From Minisyncoccota bacterium (lineage in GTDB: Bacteria; Patescibacteriota; Minisyncoccia; Phycocordibacterales; UBA1006), in assembly GCA_028697455.1 (NCBI GenBank), contig JAQVEZ010000001.1, forward strand, positions 131,902-164,970: a stretch of 33,069 bases of DNA, in the 5' to 3' direction. The notes beneath the pieces are model-generated. The model was not told the DNA's origin and did not search any database. It saw only the letters and a program-made list of their open reading frames with translations. Shown here piece after piece: positions 8,371-16,293 of the stretch. The position numbers and the translations under genes were made by a program. The stretch's first letter is position 1; each line of letters begins with the position of its first letter.

Positions 8371-9066
8371 TTACTCAAATATAGGAATAGATAAATCTAT
8401 ATCTTGTATTTTTTTAAACTTATATTTCCCATCTGTAAATATTTCTAAACGAAACATTCCGTTAAGAAATTTTCTATACGGGCGATCAGTATATGACATT
8501 AGCCTTAAATAAAATGAATCATCAGTTTTTCCATCAAATAATATAAAATAAAAATGAGAAAAATTAACTCTATTCTCTGGAAAAATACCTTTTAGGAATT
8601 CATGAGAATCAAACCTTTCTGAATCCATATCATTTATGATAACCAATGATTTATCATATCTATATCCAACACCTTGCTTGTGATTAATTTTATTATTTAC
8701 AGTATAATCACGTTTTTCAAAATAATTACTTCCTTTAGAAAATTCACATAAATAAGTTGTTTCTATTTTTTCCAAACTATTTATAAATTTATCCGTTTGA
8801 TGTTCATATTGTAAATCCAAAACATAACCATCATCACTGACTCCATCATCTTTACCACGAATTACCCAACCACCACTAGATTCAATAAATTTTCTGAATG
8901 CACCTATTACACTTAATACATAAAATTCTGCAAAAGAAATATTAAAATGATAGTCTAATTTTCCAGTTTTCTTTAATCTTTCAGGGTTATTCCTTAAGTC
9001 AAGAATACAATGTCTAAAAAAAGTTTCATCTATTATAATCTCCTTTTCTGTTATTTTATTTCCCAT
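8371..9066 (-). CDS. Uncharacterised protein translationally linked to the R-M gene
   Basis: 231 aa ORF whose ATG overlaps the end of the R-M ORF by 16 nt; no recognised motif. Confidence 0.75.
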   Translation of the reverse strand: MGNKITEKEIIIDETFFRHCILDLRNNPERLKKTGKLDYHFNISFAEFYVLSVIGAFRKFIESSGGWVIRGKDDGVSDDGYVLDLQYEHQTDKFINSLEKIETTYLCEFSKGSNYFEKRDYTVNNKINHKQGVGYRYDKSLVIINDMDSERFDSHEFLKGIFPENRVNFSHFYFILFDGKTDDSFYLRLMSYTDRPYRKFLNGMFRLEIFTDGKYKFKKIQDIDLSIPIFE

Positions 9067-12000
9067 ACACCATCAATCTCCTTCATGATCCGATCTGTTT
9101 CTGAGAGGACTTTGATAATTTTTTGATAATGTTCAATGTCTTCGTTGGTGAGGGTTCTTCCCTTTCGGTCCTTGAGCCATTTTTGCGCTGGTTGATAACC
9201 TCCGATATAGGAATTCCAAGCAAGCTCTGGTACATTACCAAAATACTGACTTTCGTTGATAAAGACCTTTCCGTCTTTATAAGAAATTTTGTCTACACTA
9301 TCAGTTCCTGATTCTGGGAAGGTTGTTATAAAATCATAAACCTTTTTATCTTCCATAAGATGCAAAGTTCTCAATTCCTCGCCAAGTTTTACCAAATGCC
9401 AAAAAGTTTCTTTGTTCTCTGGATATGGCACGCGTGGAAAATCTATTTTGAGAAATTCTTTATATTTCTCACGATATGTTGGAGAGTGTAAGACTGCATA
9501 AATATAATCCAAAATATTTTCTGGCGTTGTTTCTCCTACAAGCTCGTTTATTTGTTTCCAAATCTCTTTATCAAGGTTTGGGATTTTTTCGTTTTGATCG
9601 GTATAGAGGTAAAGTGGATAAAAATAAGTTTGAGCAGAAAGATAATTCAAATCCATTATTTTGTTTGTAATAAAAACCTCATTCCAATCTCCACTGGTAG
9701 CCCTCTTTGAAATTAAACTAACATTAGTCTTTCCAACAATATGTTTATTTGTTTTTTCTCTTGGATATGCTAAAAATCCTTTTGAGTTTTCTGTATAGAA
9801 AGTATATCTATCGTCTAATGGTCTATATGATATATCTTCAAAACTTCCATTCCTAAAAACATCTTCCTTTGCCCAAGAAATTTTCCAATCTCTACCGTCA
9901 TTTGGTAAATCAAACTTAGTTCTGATTTCCTCTATATCCATTTCTTTTATAGAGGAAATAATATTTTCTATTTCATTTTTGGAAAACTGTATTGTTAAAT
10001 TATCTCTTTTTGTTTGTATCCCTGAATTATATTCATGAAATATTTCAACAATATTAAACCCTTTCTCGTATTTTTCTATCATTCCAAAATCTTTGGGAAC
10101 AAAGAAATAATACGGTTCAGAATAATTTAAGTTTTCCCACTTAATCTGTTCTATATTATTTTTATTAAGAAAATCATATTTATCTTTTCTTTCTCCATAT
10201 ACATCGTAGTGAAAAACCTCTCCCAATTCGGATTCTTTTTTCTTGTTTGTTTTTACAAAAATATTTATAGAAACACCTTGCATAATATCAAAGACATTTT
10301 GATCCTTACTTCCATCTGGTGCAGTTTCTTTTTTACGAGCATTTCCGTGTAAATCAAGAATGTAAATCTTATCAAAAGACTTCAAAAGTGATTCTCGCAT
10401 TTTTCGATGAGTAATTCCATCAATAAAACTATTGTTTGAAATATATGCAACAATTCCCTCTTGGTTTTTATCAACCATCCACTGAGCAAAACGAATAAAC
10501 TTGATATAGTCATCATCAATATTTATTTTCTTTTCGTTTAAGCCTTTTTTATAATTTTCTATTTTTTCTTGAATCCACTCACCCTTATTGCTTGAACTTA
10601 TTGAATACGGTGGATTTCCTATCACACACATGATTGGATATTCTTTTTTGATTCTTGAAGCTGATTTTGATTCTTCGGCAATACTATCAAGAACTCCAAA
10701 GAGTGTATTTTGGTTTGCATAATCTACGGGAGCTTCAAGTGTGTTGGTGAGATACACCCCGAGTCGTTCGTTGAGATCCTTTGCTCCAAAATCTTGCAAA
10801 GTCATACCGAGTTTGAGGTGCGCAATGGTGTATGACGCCATCATAAGCTCAAATCCATGGAGTCGTGGGAGAAGATCGTTTTTGACATAGGCGTCCCAGC
10901 GACCTTCCTGTCCGATAAAACTTTTATGGATATGGTGAATCACTTCGTTCAAGAAGGTTCCTGTTCCTGTTGCAACGTCAAGGACTTGGACCTTGTGATA
11001 TTCTTTTTTTATTTTTTGATCTTTGCCTGTTTTGGGGTTTAGTTCTTTTTGTTCTCTTTCAATTTTTTCGGTATCGGCAAGCCCCTTCATAAGTGCAAAA
11101 TCATTTTTGAGAATACTGTCTACGGCACGCACAATAAACTGCACCACTGGTTGCGGTGTATAGAATACTCCCATGTCCATTTTCTTTTTGGCGTCATATT
11201 CCTTCAAGAAGTCTTCATAGAAATGAATGATAGGATCTTTTTCTTGTTTTTCTTTTTGATAAAAATCAACAAGGAGTTTGTGAATATCAGCATGAGCAAA
11301 AACTTCACAAAGTTCATCAACAATAAATTTTAGTCGGTCAGGAAAAGCGTTTCCTGCAATATGATCAAAAAACGAACGAAGGAACGGATTGGTTTTTGGA
11401 ACGAGTTCTCGCGCTTCAGCACGAGAAAAATCTTCAGGCGTTGTATCTTCATATCGTGCTGCGAATAATCCATAAACTAATGTTTGCGCATACATATCAG
11501 CAAAGTCTTCGTGACTGAGGCCGTGAATGAGATTTTCGCTGATGTAATGTTCCATATTAACGAGTCCGTCGTAGGTATCTTTACCTGATTCAAGCATTTC
11601 AGAAACATTGTCGCGAATACGACGAGCTTTTCCTCCCATAATCTGTGCAAGGTGAATACCTCGTTTGATTTCTTCTTTGTGTTTTTGTGGAAAATCAAAA
11701 ATAGCCTTTGCTAAGGTTTCGATATTTCCTTTATCAGCAAGCGACAGATTTTTTTTATCAATATCTGCAAGAGTAATGGTATCTACTTTTTCACCATTTC
11801 TAAAAAACCGAAAATCAACATAATCAGAAATAATGAGATTGTCATACCCAAAATAACGTTCTGCTTGATTTGATTTTTCTATTTTATCAAGATCTTCACC
11901 AACTTTTTTTACTTCAATATACAAGACAGGAACTTTGTTCTTGATAATTACAAAGTCAGGCTTGTTTCCATCTATCGCCTTTTGGTCTTGCTGGGTAAAA

Positions 12001-12119
12001 TACCCTTGAGAAGCAGGGAAAATTTCTTTAAGAAAATTCTCAAAAGTCGTTCGGTAAGAGTGCTCTGAACTGTTTATATCTTTATAATATTTTCCAATTT
12101 CTGACAGATAATTATTCAT
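9051..12119 (-). CDS. Single-chain restriction-modification enzyme: N-terminal PD-(D/E)XK nuclease, N6-adenine methyltransferase, Type ISP-like specificity region; no helicase
   Basis: KPDFVIIKNKVPVLYIEVKK (nuclease), GVFYTPQPVVQFIVRAVD, VLDVATGTGTFL (SAM motif), VIGNPPYS (NPPY), GRDWKISWAKEDVFRNGSFEDISYRPLDDRYTFYT (Type ISP-like); ORF-track start is 12128. Confidence 0.88.
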   Translation of the reverse strand: MNNYLSEIGKYYKDINSSEHSYRTTFENFLKEIFPASQGYFTQQDQKAIDGNKPDFVIIKNKVPVLYIEVKKVGEDLDKIEKSNQAERYFGYDNLIISDYVDFRFFRNGEKVDTITLADIDKKNLSLADKGNIETLAKAIFDFPQKHKEEIKRGIHLAQIMGGKARRIRDNVSEMLESGKDTYDGLVNMEHYISENLIHGLSHEDFADMYAQTLVYGLFAARYEDTTPEDFSRAEARELVPKTNPFLRSFFDHIAGNAFPDRLKFIVDELCEVFAHADIHKLLVDFYQKEKQEKDPIIHFYEDFLKEYDAKKKMDMGVFYTPQPVVQFIVRAVDSILKNDFALMKGLADTEKIEREQKELNPKTGKDQKIKKEYHKVQVLDVATGTGTFLNEVIHHIHKSFIGQEGRWDAYVKNDLLPRLHGFELMMASYTIAHLKLGMTLQDFGAKDLNERLGVYLTNTLEAPVDYANQNTLFGVLDSIAEESKSASRIKKEYPIMCVIGNPPYSISSSNKGEWIQEKIENYKKGLNEKKINIDDDYIKFIRFAQWMVDKNQEGIVAYISNNSFIDGITHRKMRESLLKSFDKIYILDLHGNARKKETAPDGSKDQNVFDIMQGVSINIFVKTNKKKESELGEVFHYDVYGERKDKYDFLNKNNIEQIKWENLNYSEPYYFFVPKDFGMIEKYEKGFNIVEIFHEYNSGIQTKRDNLTIQFSKNEIENIISSIKEMDIEEIRTKFDLPNDGRDWKISWAKEDVFRNGSFEDISYRPLDDRYTFYTENSKGFLAYPREKTNKHIVGKTNVSLISKRATSGDWNEVFITNKIMDLNYLSAQTYFYPLYLYTDQNEKIPNLDKEIWKQINELVGETTPENILDYIYAVLHSPTYREKYKEFLKIDFPRVPYPENKETFWHLVKLGEELRTLHLMEDKKVYDFITTFPESGTDSVDKISYKDGKVFINESQYFGNVPELAWNSYIGGYQPAQKWLKDRKGRTLTNEDIEHYQKIIKVLSETDRIMKEIDGVWEIK

Positions 12120-12162
12120 TATTCTCATAGTATACCAAAAAACCTCAAATTAAATGAGGAAT

Positions 12163-12708
12163 TTAAGGGGTATTGTTTGTTGTGAGCTTCTCAAGAATAT
12201 CTTTGATAACAACAGAATACTCCTGTCCTACTCGCACTCGAAAGAACGGAACGCCAACACTATCTAAAATATCATTTTTAATTTTATCGTATCTTGATTG
12301 TTGTTCTTGTTTATGACCAAAACCGTCAAGCTCAATAACACAAACGATTTTACTAGTATTTTTACCAAGGAGAACAAAATCTAAATGTTTGGATTTTATA
12401 TAATTTCTTTTGATATTATTTTCCCGATAGCCAAGTTGTCCTGTAGTGGTGACCACATCTTCAAGTCGTACTTTTGAAAGAATATTAAAAGAATTTTCTG
12501 CTTGTCTAATAAGTTCTTCATAAAAAGGTTTTTCAGTATAAGTGAAAAAATAATCTCGTAATTTAAAATAAGATCCAATATTTTTTTGTCCTTCTGTCCT
12601 TCGTCCCAAATTATAAGAAGAAGAATTCAAAAAACTTCTCAAGGCAAGAACAATAAAAAAGAAAGAAATACCAAAGAAACAAAAAATAATAAAAACAAAA
12701 AATACCAT
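12163..12708 (-). CDS. Membrane-anchored DUF2726 domain protein
   Basis: N-terminal TM; LDFVLLGKNTSKIVCVIELDGFGHKQEQQSRYDKIKNDILDSVGVPFFRVRV. Confidence 0.75.
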   Translation of the reverse strand: MVFFVFIIFCFFGISFFFIVLALRSFLNSSSYNLGRRTEGQKNIGSYFKLRDYFFTYTEKPFYEELIRQAENSFNILSKVRLEDVVTTTGQLGYRENNIKRNYIKSKHLDFVLLGKNTSKIVCVIELDGFGHKQEQQSRYDKIKNDILDSVGVPFFRVRVGQEYSVVIKDILEKLTTNNTP

Positions 12709-12817: not shown

Positions 12818-12825
12818 GCTTTATG

Positions 12826-12896
12826 CTGCCAGACTAGGATTCGAACCTAGATAGCCAGGACCAAAACCTGGAGTCCTACCATTAGACGATCTGGCA
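12826..12896 (-). tRNA. tRNA-Gln(UUG)
   Basis: TGCCAGA TC GTCT AATGGTA GGAC T CCAGG TTTTGGT CCTGG CTAT CTAGG TTCGAAT CCTAG TCTGGCA G; full cloverleaf, anticodon TTG, discriminator G, CCA not encoded. Confidence 0.95.
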
Positions 12897-12924
12897 ATAA
12901 ATTTAAAATATATGTGTAACTGTT

Positions 12925-13070
12925 TTTGTGAGAGAATATCAGGTTTTGAGCAAAACCTAGCCTATCACCTGTTCGCACGCTCACAGCGGTGATTTCCGAG
13001 TAAACTCGGAACCGGATACTTTCCTTTTCAAAAGCAAAGTATTCCTACCATTAGACGATCTGGCAATAAA
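12925..13070 (-). repeat. Tandem unit A: tRNA-Gln 5' half fused to a multi-hairpin element
   Basis: tcctaccattagacgatctggcaata at 13043-13068 matches 12874-12899 of the tRNA gene; rest nearly identical to unit B. Confidence 0.9.
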
Positions 13071-13094
13071 ATTAAAATATATATTTGTAAATAT

Positions 13095-13240
13095 TTTTTG
13101 TGAAAGAATATCAGGTTTTGAGCAAAACCTAGCCTATCACCTGTTCGCACGCTCACAACGGTGATTTCCGAGTAAACTCGGAACCGGGTACTTTCCTTTT
13201 CAAAAGCAAAGTATTCCTACCATTAGACGATCTGGCAATA
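13095..13240 (-). repeat. Tandem unit B: tRNA-Gln 5' half fused to a multi-hairpin element
   Basis: Same 26-nt block at 13215-13240; period to unit A 172 bp, unit A to tRNA 169 bp. Confidence 0.9.
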
Positions 13241-13268: not shown

Positions 13269-13295
13269 AACAAGGTTGTGCATGACAACCTTGTT
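13269..13295. terminator. Terminator-like inverted repeat overlapping the dnaX stop
   Basis: aacaaggttgt-gcatg-acaaccttgtt. Confidence 0.6.
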
Positions 13296-14360: not shown

Positions 14361-15398
14361 CTAACAAGGGATTTGTTCGTCGAGAATATCGGGATGTTCT
14401 TTTTGAAATGCTGCACAAATATCTTCAATTTCCTTGAGGGTGTGTGCATCCATGAGGGCAATTCTCAATTCTTTTGAATCTGTAAAACCGCTCACGTAGG
14501 CTTTGTAGTGTTTTTTCATGATCGCAAAATTCTTATGGTCTCCAAGCTCTTCCAAAAAGAGTTTTGTGTGTTCGAGAAGTACCTCAAGTTTGTCTTTGAC
14601 ACTTACCGTATTTTTATCATGATCAAAAAACCAAGGATTTCCAAAAATTCCTCTCCCTATCATAATTCCATCAAGCTTATAATTCTCGGCAAAGCGATAC
14701 GCTTGATCCAAAGAAACAACATCTCCGTTCCCAAGAATTTTTGTTGTCTTACCTGATGCACGGACGATCTCTCCTGCTCGTGCAATCCAGTCCCAATTTG
14801 CTGGAACCTTGCTCATAACCTTACGAGTACGCCCATGGAGAATAATGGCTGCAATATCACATTCAAGGAGTGCAGGAATCCATTCTTCAATTTGGTTTTC
14901 TGTCCAGCCGACACGTGTCTTTACCGAGATGGGGATTTTGCCATCAACACCTCTTTTTGCTGCGTAGATGACTTCTTGAGCTTGTTTGGGATTCTTAATA
15001 AGCGCAGAACCAGCTCCTTGTTTACAGATATTTTTTTCTGGGCACCCCATGTTGATATCAACACCATCAAAACCCAGCGAAAGACACAATCGTGCAGCCT
15101 TCTCTACGGTATCAGGGTTACTCGAAAAAATCTGAGCAACAATCGGATGCTCGTGGGACGAGAACCGTAAATCCTTGATAAGTTTTTCTCTCCCCTGTTC
15201 GTGATCAAGCCCATCAGCCGAAACAAACTCGGTATAAAAAACATGAGGACCCCCATTAGTTTCCCCATGTCGTGAATACTTTGCAATAATTTTACGAAAG
15301 GCACTGTCCGTCACGTCCGCCATAGGGGCAAGAACAAGAAAAGGGTTTGGGAGCTTCTCCCAAAAGCCCATTATTATTTTTTCATTATTATTCTTCAT
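14361..15398 (-). CDS. dus: tRNA-dihydrouridine synthase
   Basis: FLVLAPMADVTDSAFR, DGVDINMGCPEKNICKQGAGSALI, VKTRVGW, LHGRTR, GNGDV, GIMIGRGIFGNPW; start chosen at MKNNNEK. Confidence 0.94.
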   Translation of the reverse strand: MKNNNEKIIMGFWEKLPNPFLVLAPMADVTDSAFRKIIAKYSRHGETNGGPHVFYTEFVSADGLDHEQGREKLIKDLRFSSHEHPIVAQIFSSNPDTVEKAARLCLSLGFDGVDINMGCPEKNICKQGAGSALIKNPKQAQEVIYAAKRGVDGKIPISVKTRVGWTENQIEEWIPALLECDIAAIILHGRTRKVMSKVPANWDWIARAGEIVRASGKTTKILGNGDVVSLDQAYRFAENYKLDGIMIGRGIFGNPWFFDHDKNTVSVKDKLEVLLEHTKLFLEELGDHKNFAIMKKHYKAYVSGFTDSKELRIALMDAHTLKEIEDICAAFQKEHPDILDEQIPC

Positions 15399-16293
15399 GG
15401 TCGTTATGAAAAGACTGTGGTGAGAACGTATAAAAAATTCTTCCATCAACACGAAGGTCAAGTGATTCAAGGTTTTGCGGCTGCTCTCGAAAATCTTTTT
15501 CAAATCCTGGTGTTCCAAATGCTATACCAATATTTCGAAAGAGTGTAGCATAATCATCACTCTGATTAAAAAAGAGTTTTGGAAATGGTCGTTCGTAGAG
15601 CGTTGTATCAATCGAAGAAATTTCCATACTCACATCATCAAACTCCTCAAAGAAAATTCTAAAAACATGAATTCCATATTCAGACTGTATTGCCTCCAAA
15701 AACGTCAAAAAATCTTCTAGTGGGACATTCTTGCTGTATGAAAAAACATTTTCTCCAAGGAAATAATTTTGCCCTTCTCTTTGCGGAAGGAAGAAAAATT
15801 TTAAGAAAATATCTCCTGAAAAATACGGAGCTCGTGCATAAAGAATTCCATCATTATCAGCAAAATAGCATTCTTCATCAAGAGCTTGTTCATACTCTTT
15901 ATTCACACACCAAAGCGAGTGGGCAAAACGCTCATCAAGAGTAATCACAAGTCTTTTTGTTTCAACTAAACCTGCATCGACTTTGAGTATCTTAGGAAAT
16001 TTTGTCCTAAGTCTATTTTCAAGTTGCGCGGAAGAAAAAAGCAGAAAATTTCTTTTTGGTAAAAGCCAGAGATACTTTTCAGAGAGAAATTCATTAATAT
16101 CAAGCAAAAGCTCTTCTTCTCCAAGTGTTTGCTCTCCACTTATTTCAATCTCTTTAATGAGAAAATAATCATTATTCATAATAATAACGAAAGAAACGAG
16201 AATAATAATCAAAGCCCCCCAAAAAAACACCGTTCGTTTGTTGGAGCGTTTCTTTTCTCTCAGAGTTTTTCGATTATTAATATCTCGATACAT
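15388..16293 (-). CDS. FtsQ-like cell division protein with POTRA-type domain
   Basis: Basic N-terminus, single TM, then FLIKEIEISGEQTLGEEELLLDI...LWLLPKRNFLLFSSAQLENRLRTKFPKILKVDAGLVETKRLVITLDER. Confidence 0.7.
   Translation of the reverse strand: MYRDINNRKTLREKKRSNKRTVFFWGALIIILVSFVIIMNNDYFLIKEIEISGEQTLGEEELLLDINEFLSEKYLWLLPKRNFLLFSSAQLENRLRTKFPKILKVDAGLVETKRLVITLDERFAHSLWCVNKEYEQALDEECYFADNDGILYARAPYFSGDIFLKFFFLPQREGQNYFLGENVFSYSKNVPLEDFLTFLEAIQSEYGIHVFRIFFEEFDDVSMEISSIDTTLYERPFPKLFFNQSDDYATLFRNIGIAFGTPGFEKDFREQPQNLESLDLRVDGRIFYTFSPQSFHNDHEE

What the first reader, a model, noticed from the sequence alone, without database searches (positions are those of the whole stretch)
12874..13240. 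Tandem units fusing the tRNA-Gln 5' half to a multi-hairpin element
The 26-nt block TATTGCCAGATCGTCTAATGGTAGGA (acceptor 5' strand plus D-arm of tRNA-Gln) occurs three times on the minus strand: in the intact tRNA and in two upstream units at 172- and 169-bp spacing. In each unit the anticodon and T-arm halves are replaced by ~110 nt of hairpins: AUACUUU/AAAGUAU, CCGAG-UUUA-CUCGG, CAC-CG-(C/U)UGU/ACAG-GUG, and AGGUUUU-GCUC-AAAACCU. One inter-copy difference, C to U in (C/U)UGU, preserves pairing as G-U. The last hairpin, CUAGGUUUUGCUCAAAACCU, resembles a degraded T-arm (CUAGGUUCGAAUCCUAG), so each unit may be a tRNA-like decoy or pseudo-tRNA with a large insertion. Mobile elements usually duplicate tRNA 3' ends, not 5' halves, so this is atypical for integration.
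Basis: partly seen in the sequence, partly recalled or inferred. Interest (0 to 1): 0.78.

Follow-up and report, generated by a model that had tools for sequence, protein, structure and literature searches.

The report
Mobile RNA element lodged in tRNA copies
Next to a tRNA gene of an ultra-small bacterium sit two broken copies of that tRNA, each invaded by a folded RNA element; the same element turns up beside about twenty kinds of tRNA in a quarter of the genomes sampled from that bacterial order, usually ending in a stretch complementary to the neighbouring tRNA, and I found no earlier description of it.

Summary
In detail: two tandem units (13240-13069, 13068-12900, minus strand) repeat tRNA-Gln(UUG) nt 1-23, followed by ~80 nt of hairpins and a fold-back hairpin. 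That last hairpin is not a degraded T-arm: it is the anticodon-arm 5' strand (X) followed by its antisense (X'). The ~80-nt core belongs to a large, strongly covarying RNA family (36 of 38 base pairs change on both sides; GU:AC 172:19, so RNA of the tRNA strand), found in 98 of 397 genomes of the host's order and in none of about 278 sampled elsewhere in the phylum. Of 103 copies, 71 lie upstream of an intact tRNA; 60 of these begin with that tRNA's own 5' end and 49 carry an X' complementary to it. Cores spread between tRNA loci: the nearest relative of a core sits at a different tRNA in 55 of 71 cases, and one genome has 98.8% identical cores at Ser and Lys tRNAs, each with its own tRNA-specific arms. 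Best reading: an undescribed dispersing, non-coding structured RNA element that lands after a GG, usually G18-G19 of the D-loop, in duplicated tRNA genes. How it moves, and whether X' is a guide, regulator or by-product, is not shown.

The parts
12825..12896 (-). Intact tRNA-Gln (anticodon UUG)
   Evidence: ARAGORN and Rfam RF00005, 60.3 bits
13069..13240 (-). Unit 1 (172 bp): tRNA-Gln 5' copy, core, X-X' hairpin, AT-rich spacer
   Evidence: exact 26-mer repeat; R1/R2 match 13109-13238, E 8.1e-41 and 5.1e-36
12900..13068 (-). Unit 2 (169 bp), tandem copy of unit 1
   Evidence: R1/R2 match, E 9.5e-42 and 7.5e-37
13215..13237 (-). Unit 1: copy of tRNA-Gln nt 1-23
   Evidence: identical to the tRNA
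13136..13214 (-). Unit 1: structured core (hp1 13214-13189, hp2 13183-13166, hp3 13165-13136)
   Evidence: covariance model and pair counts over 103 copies
13123..13130 (-). Unit 1: X, sense copy of the anticodon-arm 5' strand (AGGTTTTG)
   Evidence: sequence
13112..13120 (-). Unit 1: X', antisense to tRNA nt 27-35 (CAAAACCTG)
13043..13065 (-). Unit 2: copy of tRNA-Gln nt 1-23
12964..13042 (-). Unit 2: structured core
12951..12958 (-). Unit 2: X
12940..12948 (-). Unit 2: X'
13076..13104 (-). Promoter-like site in the spacer of unit 1 (TTCACA-17-TATATT)
   Evidence: consensus scan only
13269..13295 (-). Terminator-like hairpin between dnaX and unit 1

Best explanation
Each unit is a broken partial copy of tRNA-Gln that carries a member of a dispersing, non-coding structured RNA element. 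The element's core is about 80 nt with three hairpins (loop CUGC in hp1 of most members, tandem GA pairs in hp3) and forms in RNA of the tRNA strand. It lands directly after a GG, most often G18-G19 of the D-loop, in a redundant or duplicated tRNA gene, and the neighbouring intact tRNA keeps the cell alive. The disrupted copy then loses its distal part and keeps the tRNA 5' end, the core, a short sense piece (X) and an antisense piece (X') that matches the intact tRNA. In the window the whole 169-172 bp unit was also duplicated in tandem. Shown: the family, its RNA structure, its association with tRNAs, the match of 5' end and X' to the own tRNA, and the dispersal of cores between tRNAs. Inferred: that insertion is carried out by an enzyme or by the RNA acting in trans (no gene is inside the element), that an intact duplicate is what makes insertion tolerable, and that X' is either formed from the new target at insertion or kept by selection for pairing with the tRNA transcript.
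For: R2 family in 98/397 genomes of the order, up to 7 copies each. 95.2% of cells paired, 36/38 pairs with changes on both sides, covariation 0.600 against 0.07-0.09 for slid structures and 0.166 for shuffles; GU:AC 172:19. 71/103 copies upstream of an intact tRNA, 60/71 with the own tRNA's 5' end. Nearest core at a different tRNA in 55/71; same-genome/other-tRNA identity 0.689 exceeds same-family/same-tRNA 0.640. G023 Ser and Lys units: cores 98.8% identical, arms tRNA-specific; G263 has several near-identical cores in Asn, Ile, Lys and Thr copies. Left junction ...TGG|A and right end AGGNGG in most copies. Copies outside tRNAs: rpsI 3' ends, inside B elements. Patchy: 5 of 12 genomes of the own genus have matches beyond the tRNA itself.
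Against: No exact empty site of a single core was compared between close strains, so movement is inferred from core relationships. No transposition enzyme is identified. Long retention and compensatory change at some tRNAs (Thr unit identical over ~118 nt between G008 and G009 beside diverged coding sequence; Ser(GCU) covariation) suggest a function beyond selfish spread. In Gln and Glu the junction is a few nt after G18-G19, and tRNA-like units with quite different cores exist at Lys, Leu and Arg tRNAs of the own genome.
Confidence: 0.7

Rival explanations
1. The units are cis-acting regulatory leaders of the tRNA transcript: X' pairs with nt 23-36 (or 10-24) of the tRNA made just behind it, or of the finished tRNA, and switches folding, processing or transcription of that tRNA. 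The core is the scaffold.
For: X' is complementary to the intact tRNA over a longer run than to anything in its unit in 37/44 and follows the tRNA in 17 Glu units with eight different segments (12.8 against 9.9 of 15). 71/103 copies are co-oriented just upstream. For Lys the conserved promoter TTGACT-17-TATAGT lies upstream of both units in G000 and directly upstream of the tRNA in G008 and G009, which places units in the leader. Thr unit extremely conserved.
Against: No terminator or other switch output after X'; 16 of 71 units have only chance-level X'; the set of tRNAs with units differs from genome to genome; closely related genomes lack units; cores occur away from tRNAs and downstream of them.
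Confidence: 0.17
2. The core is an intron of the tRNA copy: it is spliced out, with X' as a splint that aligns the two exons.
For: The core interrupts otherwise recognisable tRNAs in a minority of loci with both parts present (L205, L222, L228, L193). X' of Lys, Val and Thr units spans the junction and pairs with both sides.
Against: Most units, including the window's, have no 3' part to join; where it is present the outer tRNA is often damaged; no match to Rfam intron families; about 80 nt is shorter than known self-splicing introns (general knowledge).
Confidence: 0.06
3. The repeats are footprints of tRNA-targeting integrative elements (att sites left after integration and loss).
For: Copies of tRNA ends as direct repeats; 3' counterparts (B elements) also exist downstream of tRNAs.
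Against: No island or integrase gene between the repeats, which are only ~95-190 bp apart; a conserved RNA core and antisense arms; 5' part rather than 3' end; the same core at about twenty tRNA types.
Confidence: 0.03
4. Neutral debris: tandem tRNA duplication plus template-switching at palindromes, without any element.
For: X-X' fold-backs look like template-switch products; units with unrelated cores share the layout.
Against: A shared core with 36/38 covarying pairs across 98 genomes and strand-specific GU bias cannot arise this way.
Confidence: 0.04

Closest known systems
Small palindromic repeats inserted into genes, e.g. Rickettsia palindromic elements (RPEs; PMC3767692)
   Same: Short (about 100-150 bp), non-coding, palindromic, dispersed, found inside existing genes, restricted to one bacterial lineage.
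   Different: Lives mainly in tRNA copies after a GG; three-hairpin core with strong covariation and RNA-strand bias; arms match the particular tRNA; an intact tRNA copy stays alongside. RPEs are described mainly in protein genes.
E. coli tyrT 178-bp repeats / rtT RNA (from memory; not re-read here)
   Same: Tandem repeats of about 170-180 bp beside a tRNA gene, each containing a piece of that tRNA.
   Different: There the piece is the tRNA 3' end, downstream; here the 5' end, upstream, with an order-wide core and antisense arm at many tRNAs.
T-box riboswitch (general knowledge)
   Same: A leader RNA with complementarity to a tRNA's anticodon region.
   Different: 9-15 nt antisense to the D- or anticodon-arm 5' strand instead of a codon; upstream of the tRNA gene itself; no T-box motif or terminator seen; no Rfam match.
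Group I or bulge-helix-bulge tRNA introns (general knowledge)
   Same: An insertion that interrupts a tRNA and pairs with the sequence on both sides.
   Different: About 80 nt, no Rfam intron match, and the usual copy lacks the 3' part while an intact tRNA stands next to it.
RNA-guided insertion elements such as IS110 bridge-RNA systems (general knowledge)
   Same: A structured RNA with a segment complementary to the target site.
   Different: No recombinase gene in or next to the element; guide role of X' not shown.

Membership tests
Small mobile palindromic element (RPE/MITE kind) | Short, non-coding, hairpin-forming repeat in many copies per lineage | tested here: met
   core about 80 nt, up to 7 matches per genome, 98/397 genomes
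Small mobile palindromic element (RPE/MITE kind) | Copies at non-orthologous places related to one another more than to copies at the orthologous place | tested here: met
   nearest core at another tRNA in 55/71
Small mobile palindromic element (RPE/MITE kind) | Defined ends, target duplication, empty sites | tested here: inconclusive
   TGG left and AGGNGG right are constant, possible 3-nt duplication; the right end may belong to the element; no strain-level empty site
Small mobile palindromic element (RPE/MITE kind) | Mobilised in trans by an identified transposase | tested here: inconclusive
   Y1 transposase in 75/98 positive and 175/299 negative genomes, OR 2.3, p 0.0016, phylogeny not controlled; absent from two copy-rich genomes
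T-box riboswitch | Rfam T-box model match | tested here: not met
   only tRNA above gathering scores
tRNA intron | Match to a catalogued self-splicing intron family | tested here: not met
tRNA intron | Both exons present and joined after removal of the core | not testable with these tools
   both parts seen in a minority (L222, L228, L193); splicing needs RNA data
tRNA-integrated island (att site) | Integrase-bearing DNA between the repeats | tested here: not met
   only about 95-190 bp without genes between repeats
Functional tRNA-like decoy | Complete acceptor stem and presented anticodon | tested here: not met
   window units lack the acceptor 3' strand; anticodon paired in X-X'

The most novel reading that the evidence does not exclude
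A guide-bearing mobile RNA: the core is a scaffold and X' is a 9-15-nt guide, complementary to the tRNA at or beside the insertion point, that directs insertion into that tRNA (gene or transcript). The guide is renewed from each new target, so the element can re-aim itself from one tRNA to another without any protein gene of its own.
Probability: 0.17. Interest if true: 0.95.

Novelty: new variant of a known kind. Interest (0 to 1): 0.79.

Why it matters
It adds an apparently undescribed structured RNA family, present in about a quarter of sampled genomes of one order of ultra-small (Patescibacteria-type) bacteria and living mainly in broken copies of tRNA genes. It shows that tRNA D-loops can be entry points for small mobile RNAs, and it gives a natural system in which an element's arms follow whichever tRNA it sits beside. 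If X' acts on the tRNA it would be a tRNA-specific regulator outside the T-box kind; if it aims insertion it would be a very small self-retargeting element. Either way the question can be tested with RNA sequencing.

Tried and rejected
Rfam (gathering and E-value) for units and 3' elements: only tRNA above gathering scores. Close copies in phages and plasmids: none; an exact 38-mer in viral contigs: none; later viral scans failed on the server. Y1 transposase as partner: weak, and its one adjacency (L258) is a separate transposase gene next to a B element. 'Degraded T-arm' for the last hairpin: rejected by the Gln(CUG) unit. Complete outer tRNA fold for the window units: no acceptor 3' strand. 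Assembly artefact: rejected by relatives. Promoter at the dnaX end as driver of the Gln units: not relied on, since it overlaps conserved codons and a terminator-like hairpin lies between. X' span tracking the junction: 31/40 against a permuted mean of 25 (largest 32), so suggestive only. Literature on tRNA repeats, tRNA introns or RNA motifs in these bacteria: nothing found in the held open-access library.

Full report
OBSERVATION. The 26-mer TATTGCCAGATCGTCTAATGGTAGGA occurs three times on the minus strand and nowhere else in the window, with no match expected by chance. One occurrence starts the intact tRNA-Gln(UUG) at 12896-12825; the other two start units of 172 and 169 bp. The two units differ at 2 of their first ~135 nt but have diverged much more in the AT-rich spacer.

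WHAT THE LAST HAIRPIN IS. Homologous units stand upstream of tRNA-Gln(UUG) in G009, at the same dnaX-side place, and upstream of tRNA-Gln(CUG) in G008. The terminal hairpin follows the isoacceptor: CTAGGTTTTG-CTC-AAAACCTGGAG beside CTCCAGGTTTTGG, and CTGGCTTCTG-CTC-AGAAGTCGGGG beside CCCCGGCTTCTGG. So it is a sense copy of the anticodon-arm 5' strand (X) followed by an antisense arm (X') that matches the neighbouring tRNA over up to 13 nt. It is not a T-arm. In the window X' has eroded to 9 nt.

THE OWN GENOME. All 34 tRNA genes and their flanks were read. Besides Gln, Lys(UUU), Leu(UAG) and Arg(GCG) have two tandem upstream units each, and Ser(GCU), Ser(GGA), Ile(UAU) and Glu(UUC) have one; each carries 5' sequence of its own tRNA, though several have cores unlike that of the window. 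Over 163 tRNAs in five genomes, own-tRNA sense copies (exact, at least 11 nt) lie upstream in 19 cases and downstream in 36, against about 1% for tRNAs of other amino acids from the same genome.

THE FAMILY. A covariance model from four Gln units (R1) found units at Ser and Tyr tRNAs in the family. A second model (R2) found matches in 98 of 397 genomes of the order, up to seven per genome, and in a phylum-wide sample of 290 only in five genomes, all of the own order. In 103 aligned copies 95.2% of cells pair, 36 of 38 pairs change on both sides, and covariation is 0.600 against 0.07-0.09 for slid structures and 0.166 for shuffles. The alignment was fitted to the structure, which favours it, but a gap this wide is not explained by that. 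Non-Watson-Crick pairs are G-U rather than A-C, 172 to 19, which points to RNA of the tRNA strand. Consensus: GGA-hp1(loop CUGC)-UCC-GG-hp2-hp3(UUGU-GA-GC..GC-GA-ACAG)-AGGNGG.

CONTEXT. 71 of 103 copies have an intact tRNA within 330 nt downstream on the same strand, of 18 isoacceptor types in this set; Ser(UGA), Ser(GGA), Ile(GAU) and Thr(CGU) are added. The 5' flank is the own tRNA's 5' end in 60 of 71. X' starts about 15 nt after hp3 and is antisense to nt 23-36 (Glu, Gln, some Thr), 10-24 (Lys, Val, Asn, Tyr, Ser) or 34-49 (Leu); 49 of 71 score at least 9 and 38 beat at least 99% of tRNAs for other amino acids. The junction lies within or near the X' target in 31 of 40 (permuted mean 25, largest 32), which is suggestive only. 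X' pairs with the intact tRNA over longer runs than with anything in its unit in 37 of 44 (these were chosen for a good X' score). In 17 Glu units with eight different tRNA segments X' fits its own tRNA at 12.8 of 15 positions on average, other Glu tRNAs at 9.9.

OTHER ARRANGEMENTS. Class II copies lie downstream of the intact tRNA: antisense 24-10, sense 10-19, core, then the tRNA 3' part (Thr: L205, L222, L224, L253). In L228 an intact tRNA-Gln sits in the loop of hp3 of a core that itself splits an outer tRNA-Gln. Cores also lie inside 3'-side 'B' elements (L246, L235, L236, L240) and away from tRNAs, for instance at the end of rpsI, whose last codons form the 5' arm of hp1 (L195, L238).

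MOBILE OR VERTICAL. Core identity is 0.689 for same genome/other tRNA, 0.640 for same family/same tRNA and 0.54-0.57 between families; the nearest core is at another tRNA in 55 of 71. The clearest case: G023 units at Ser(GCU) and Lys(UUU) have cores identical at 98.8% but own-tRNA 5' ends and own X'. So cores move between tRNAs and the arms do not travel with them. On the other side, the Thr(UGU) unit (a different core) is identical over about 118 nt in G008 and G009 while the adjacent coding sequence is much diverged, and Ser(GCU) units in four species share compensatory changes, so some units are retained for long.

MECHANISM. The most likely account is a dispersing structured RNA element that enters duplicated tRNA genes after a GG (G18-G19 of the D-loop in most) and leaves a 5'-half unit beside the intact gene. 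The route (reverse splicing with reverse transcription, or a DNA enzyme acting in trans) is unknown; Y1 transposase is at best weakly associated. X' may be a guide, a tRNA-pairing regulator, or formed by the insertion; its renewal at each new tRNA is the part that most needs explaining. For Lys a promoter seen in three genomes shows that the units can lie within the tRNA's 5' leader.

KNOWN KINDS. It works most like a small palindromic insertion element (RPE kind, PMC3767692) but differs in residence, target-matched arms and RNA conservation. No Rfam family matches, and no description was found in the open-access papers searched.

LIMITS. Genomes are mostly fragmented assemblies; copies are not phylogenetically independent; the large searches used strict filters, so counts are lower bounds; no expression data exist here.

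Noticed in passing
L060, L066, L068, L072, L011, L033 and about 20 of 35 tRNA loci of G015; stub AGGATTCGAA at window 12764-12755 (-): A second, unrelated tRNA-linked element ('B') on the 3' side: terminator, antisense T-arm, a core with GGCGGGGTCGAG...GGTGACC, then a copy of the own tRNA's 3' end from the T-loop on. It folds with the antisense and sense T-arm copies as closing stem.
   Followed up: partly
L069, L080, L083: Lys(UUU) units of G000 and Thr(UGU) units of G008/G009 share another core (GAGGYGAGGGGUG-hairpin-CACGCCGARC) with the same layout of tRNA 5' copy, X and X'.
   Followed up: partly
L059 (Leu UAG), L067 (Arg GCG): Two tandem 95-bp units upstream of each of these tRNAs in the own genome, without the window's core; Gln, Lys, Leu and Arg all have exactly two.
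   Followed up: no
L228; also L183, L035, L054: Nested tRNA-Gln: an intact tRNA lies inside the insertion that splits an outer tRNA-Gln; in L183 the outer acceptor stem has a compensatory pair change (TGCCGGA/TCCGGCA against TGCCAGA/TCTGGCA).
   Followed up: partly
L195, L238: The core sits at the 3' end of rpsI in two families and uses the last codons (TGG AGT AAA MGN TAA) as the 5' arm of hp1.
   Followed up: no
window 14361-15518 (-): A tRNA-dihydrouridine synthase gene (Pfam Dus), an enzyme of the D-loop, lies directly upstream of dnaX and so close to the D-arm-disrupted tRNA copies; probably coincidence.
   Followed up: no
window 9051-12708 (-): A type ISP restriction-modification gene (PF18135) and a DUF2726 gene lie just 3' of tRNA-Gln, as in a tRNA-associated island.
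   Followed up: no
order-wide PF01797 search: Many Y1 transposase ORFs of about 210-250 aa, the size of REP-associated transposases, occur through this order; 250 of 397 genomes match.
   Followed up: no
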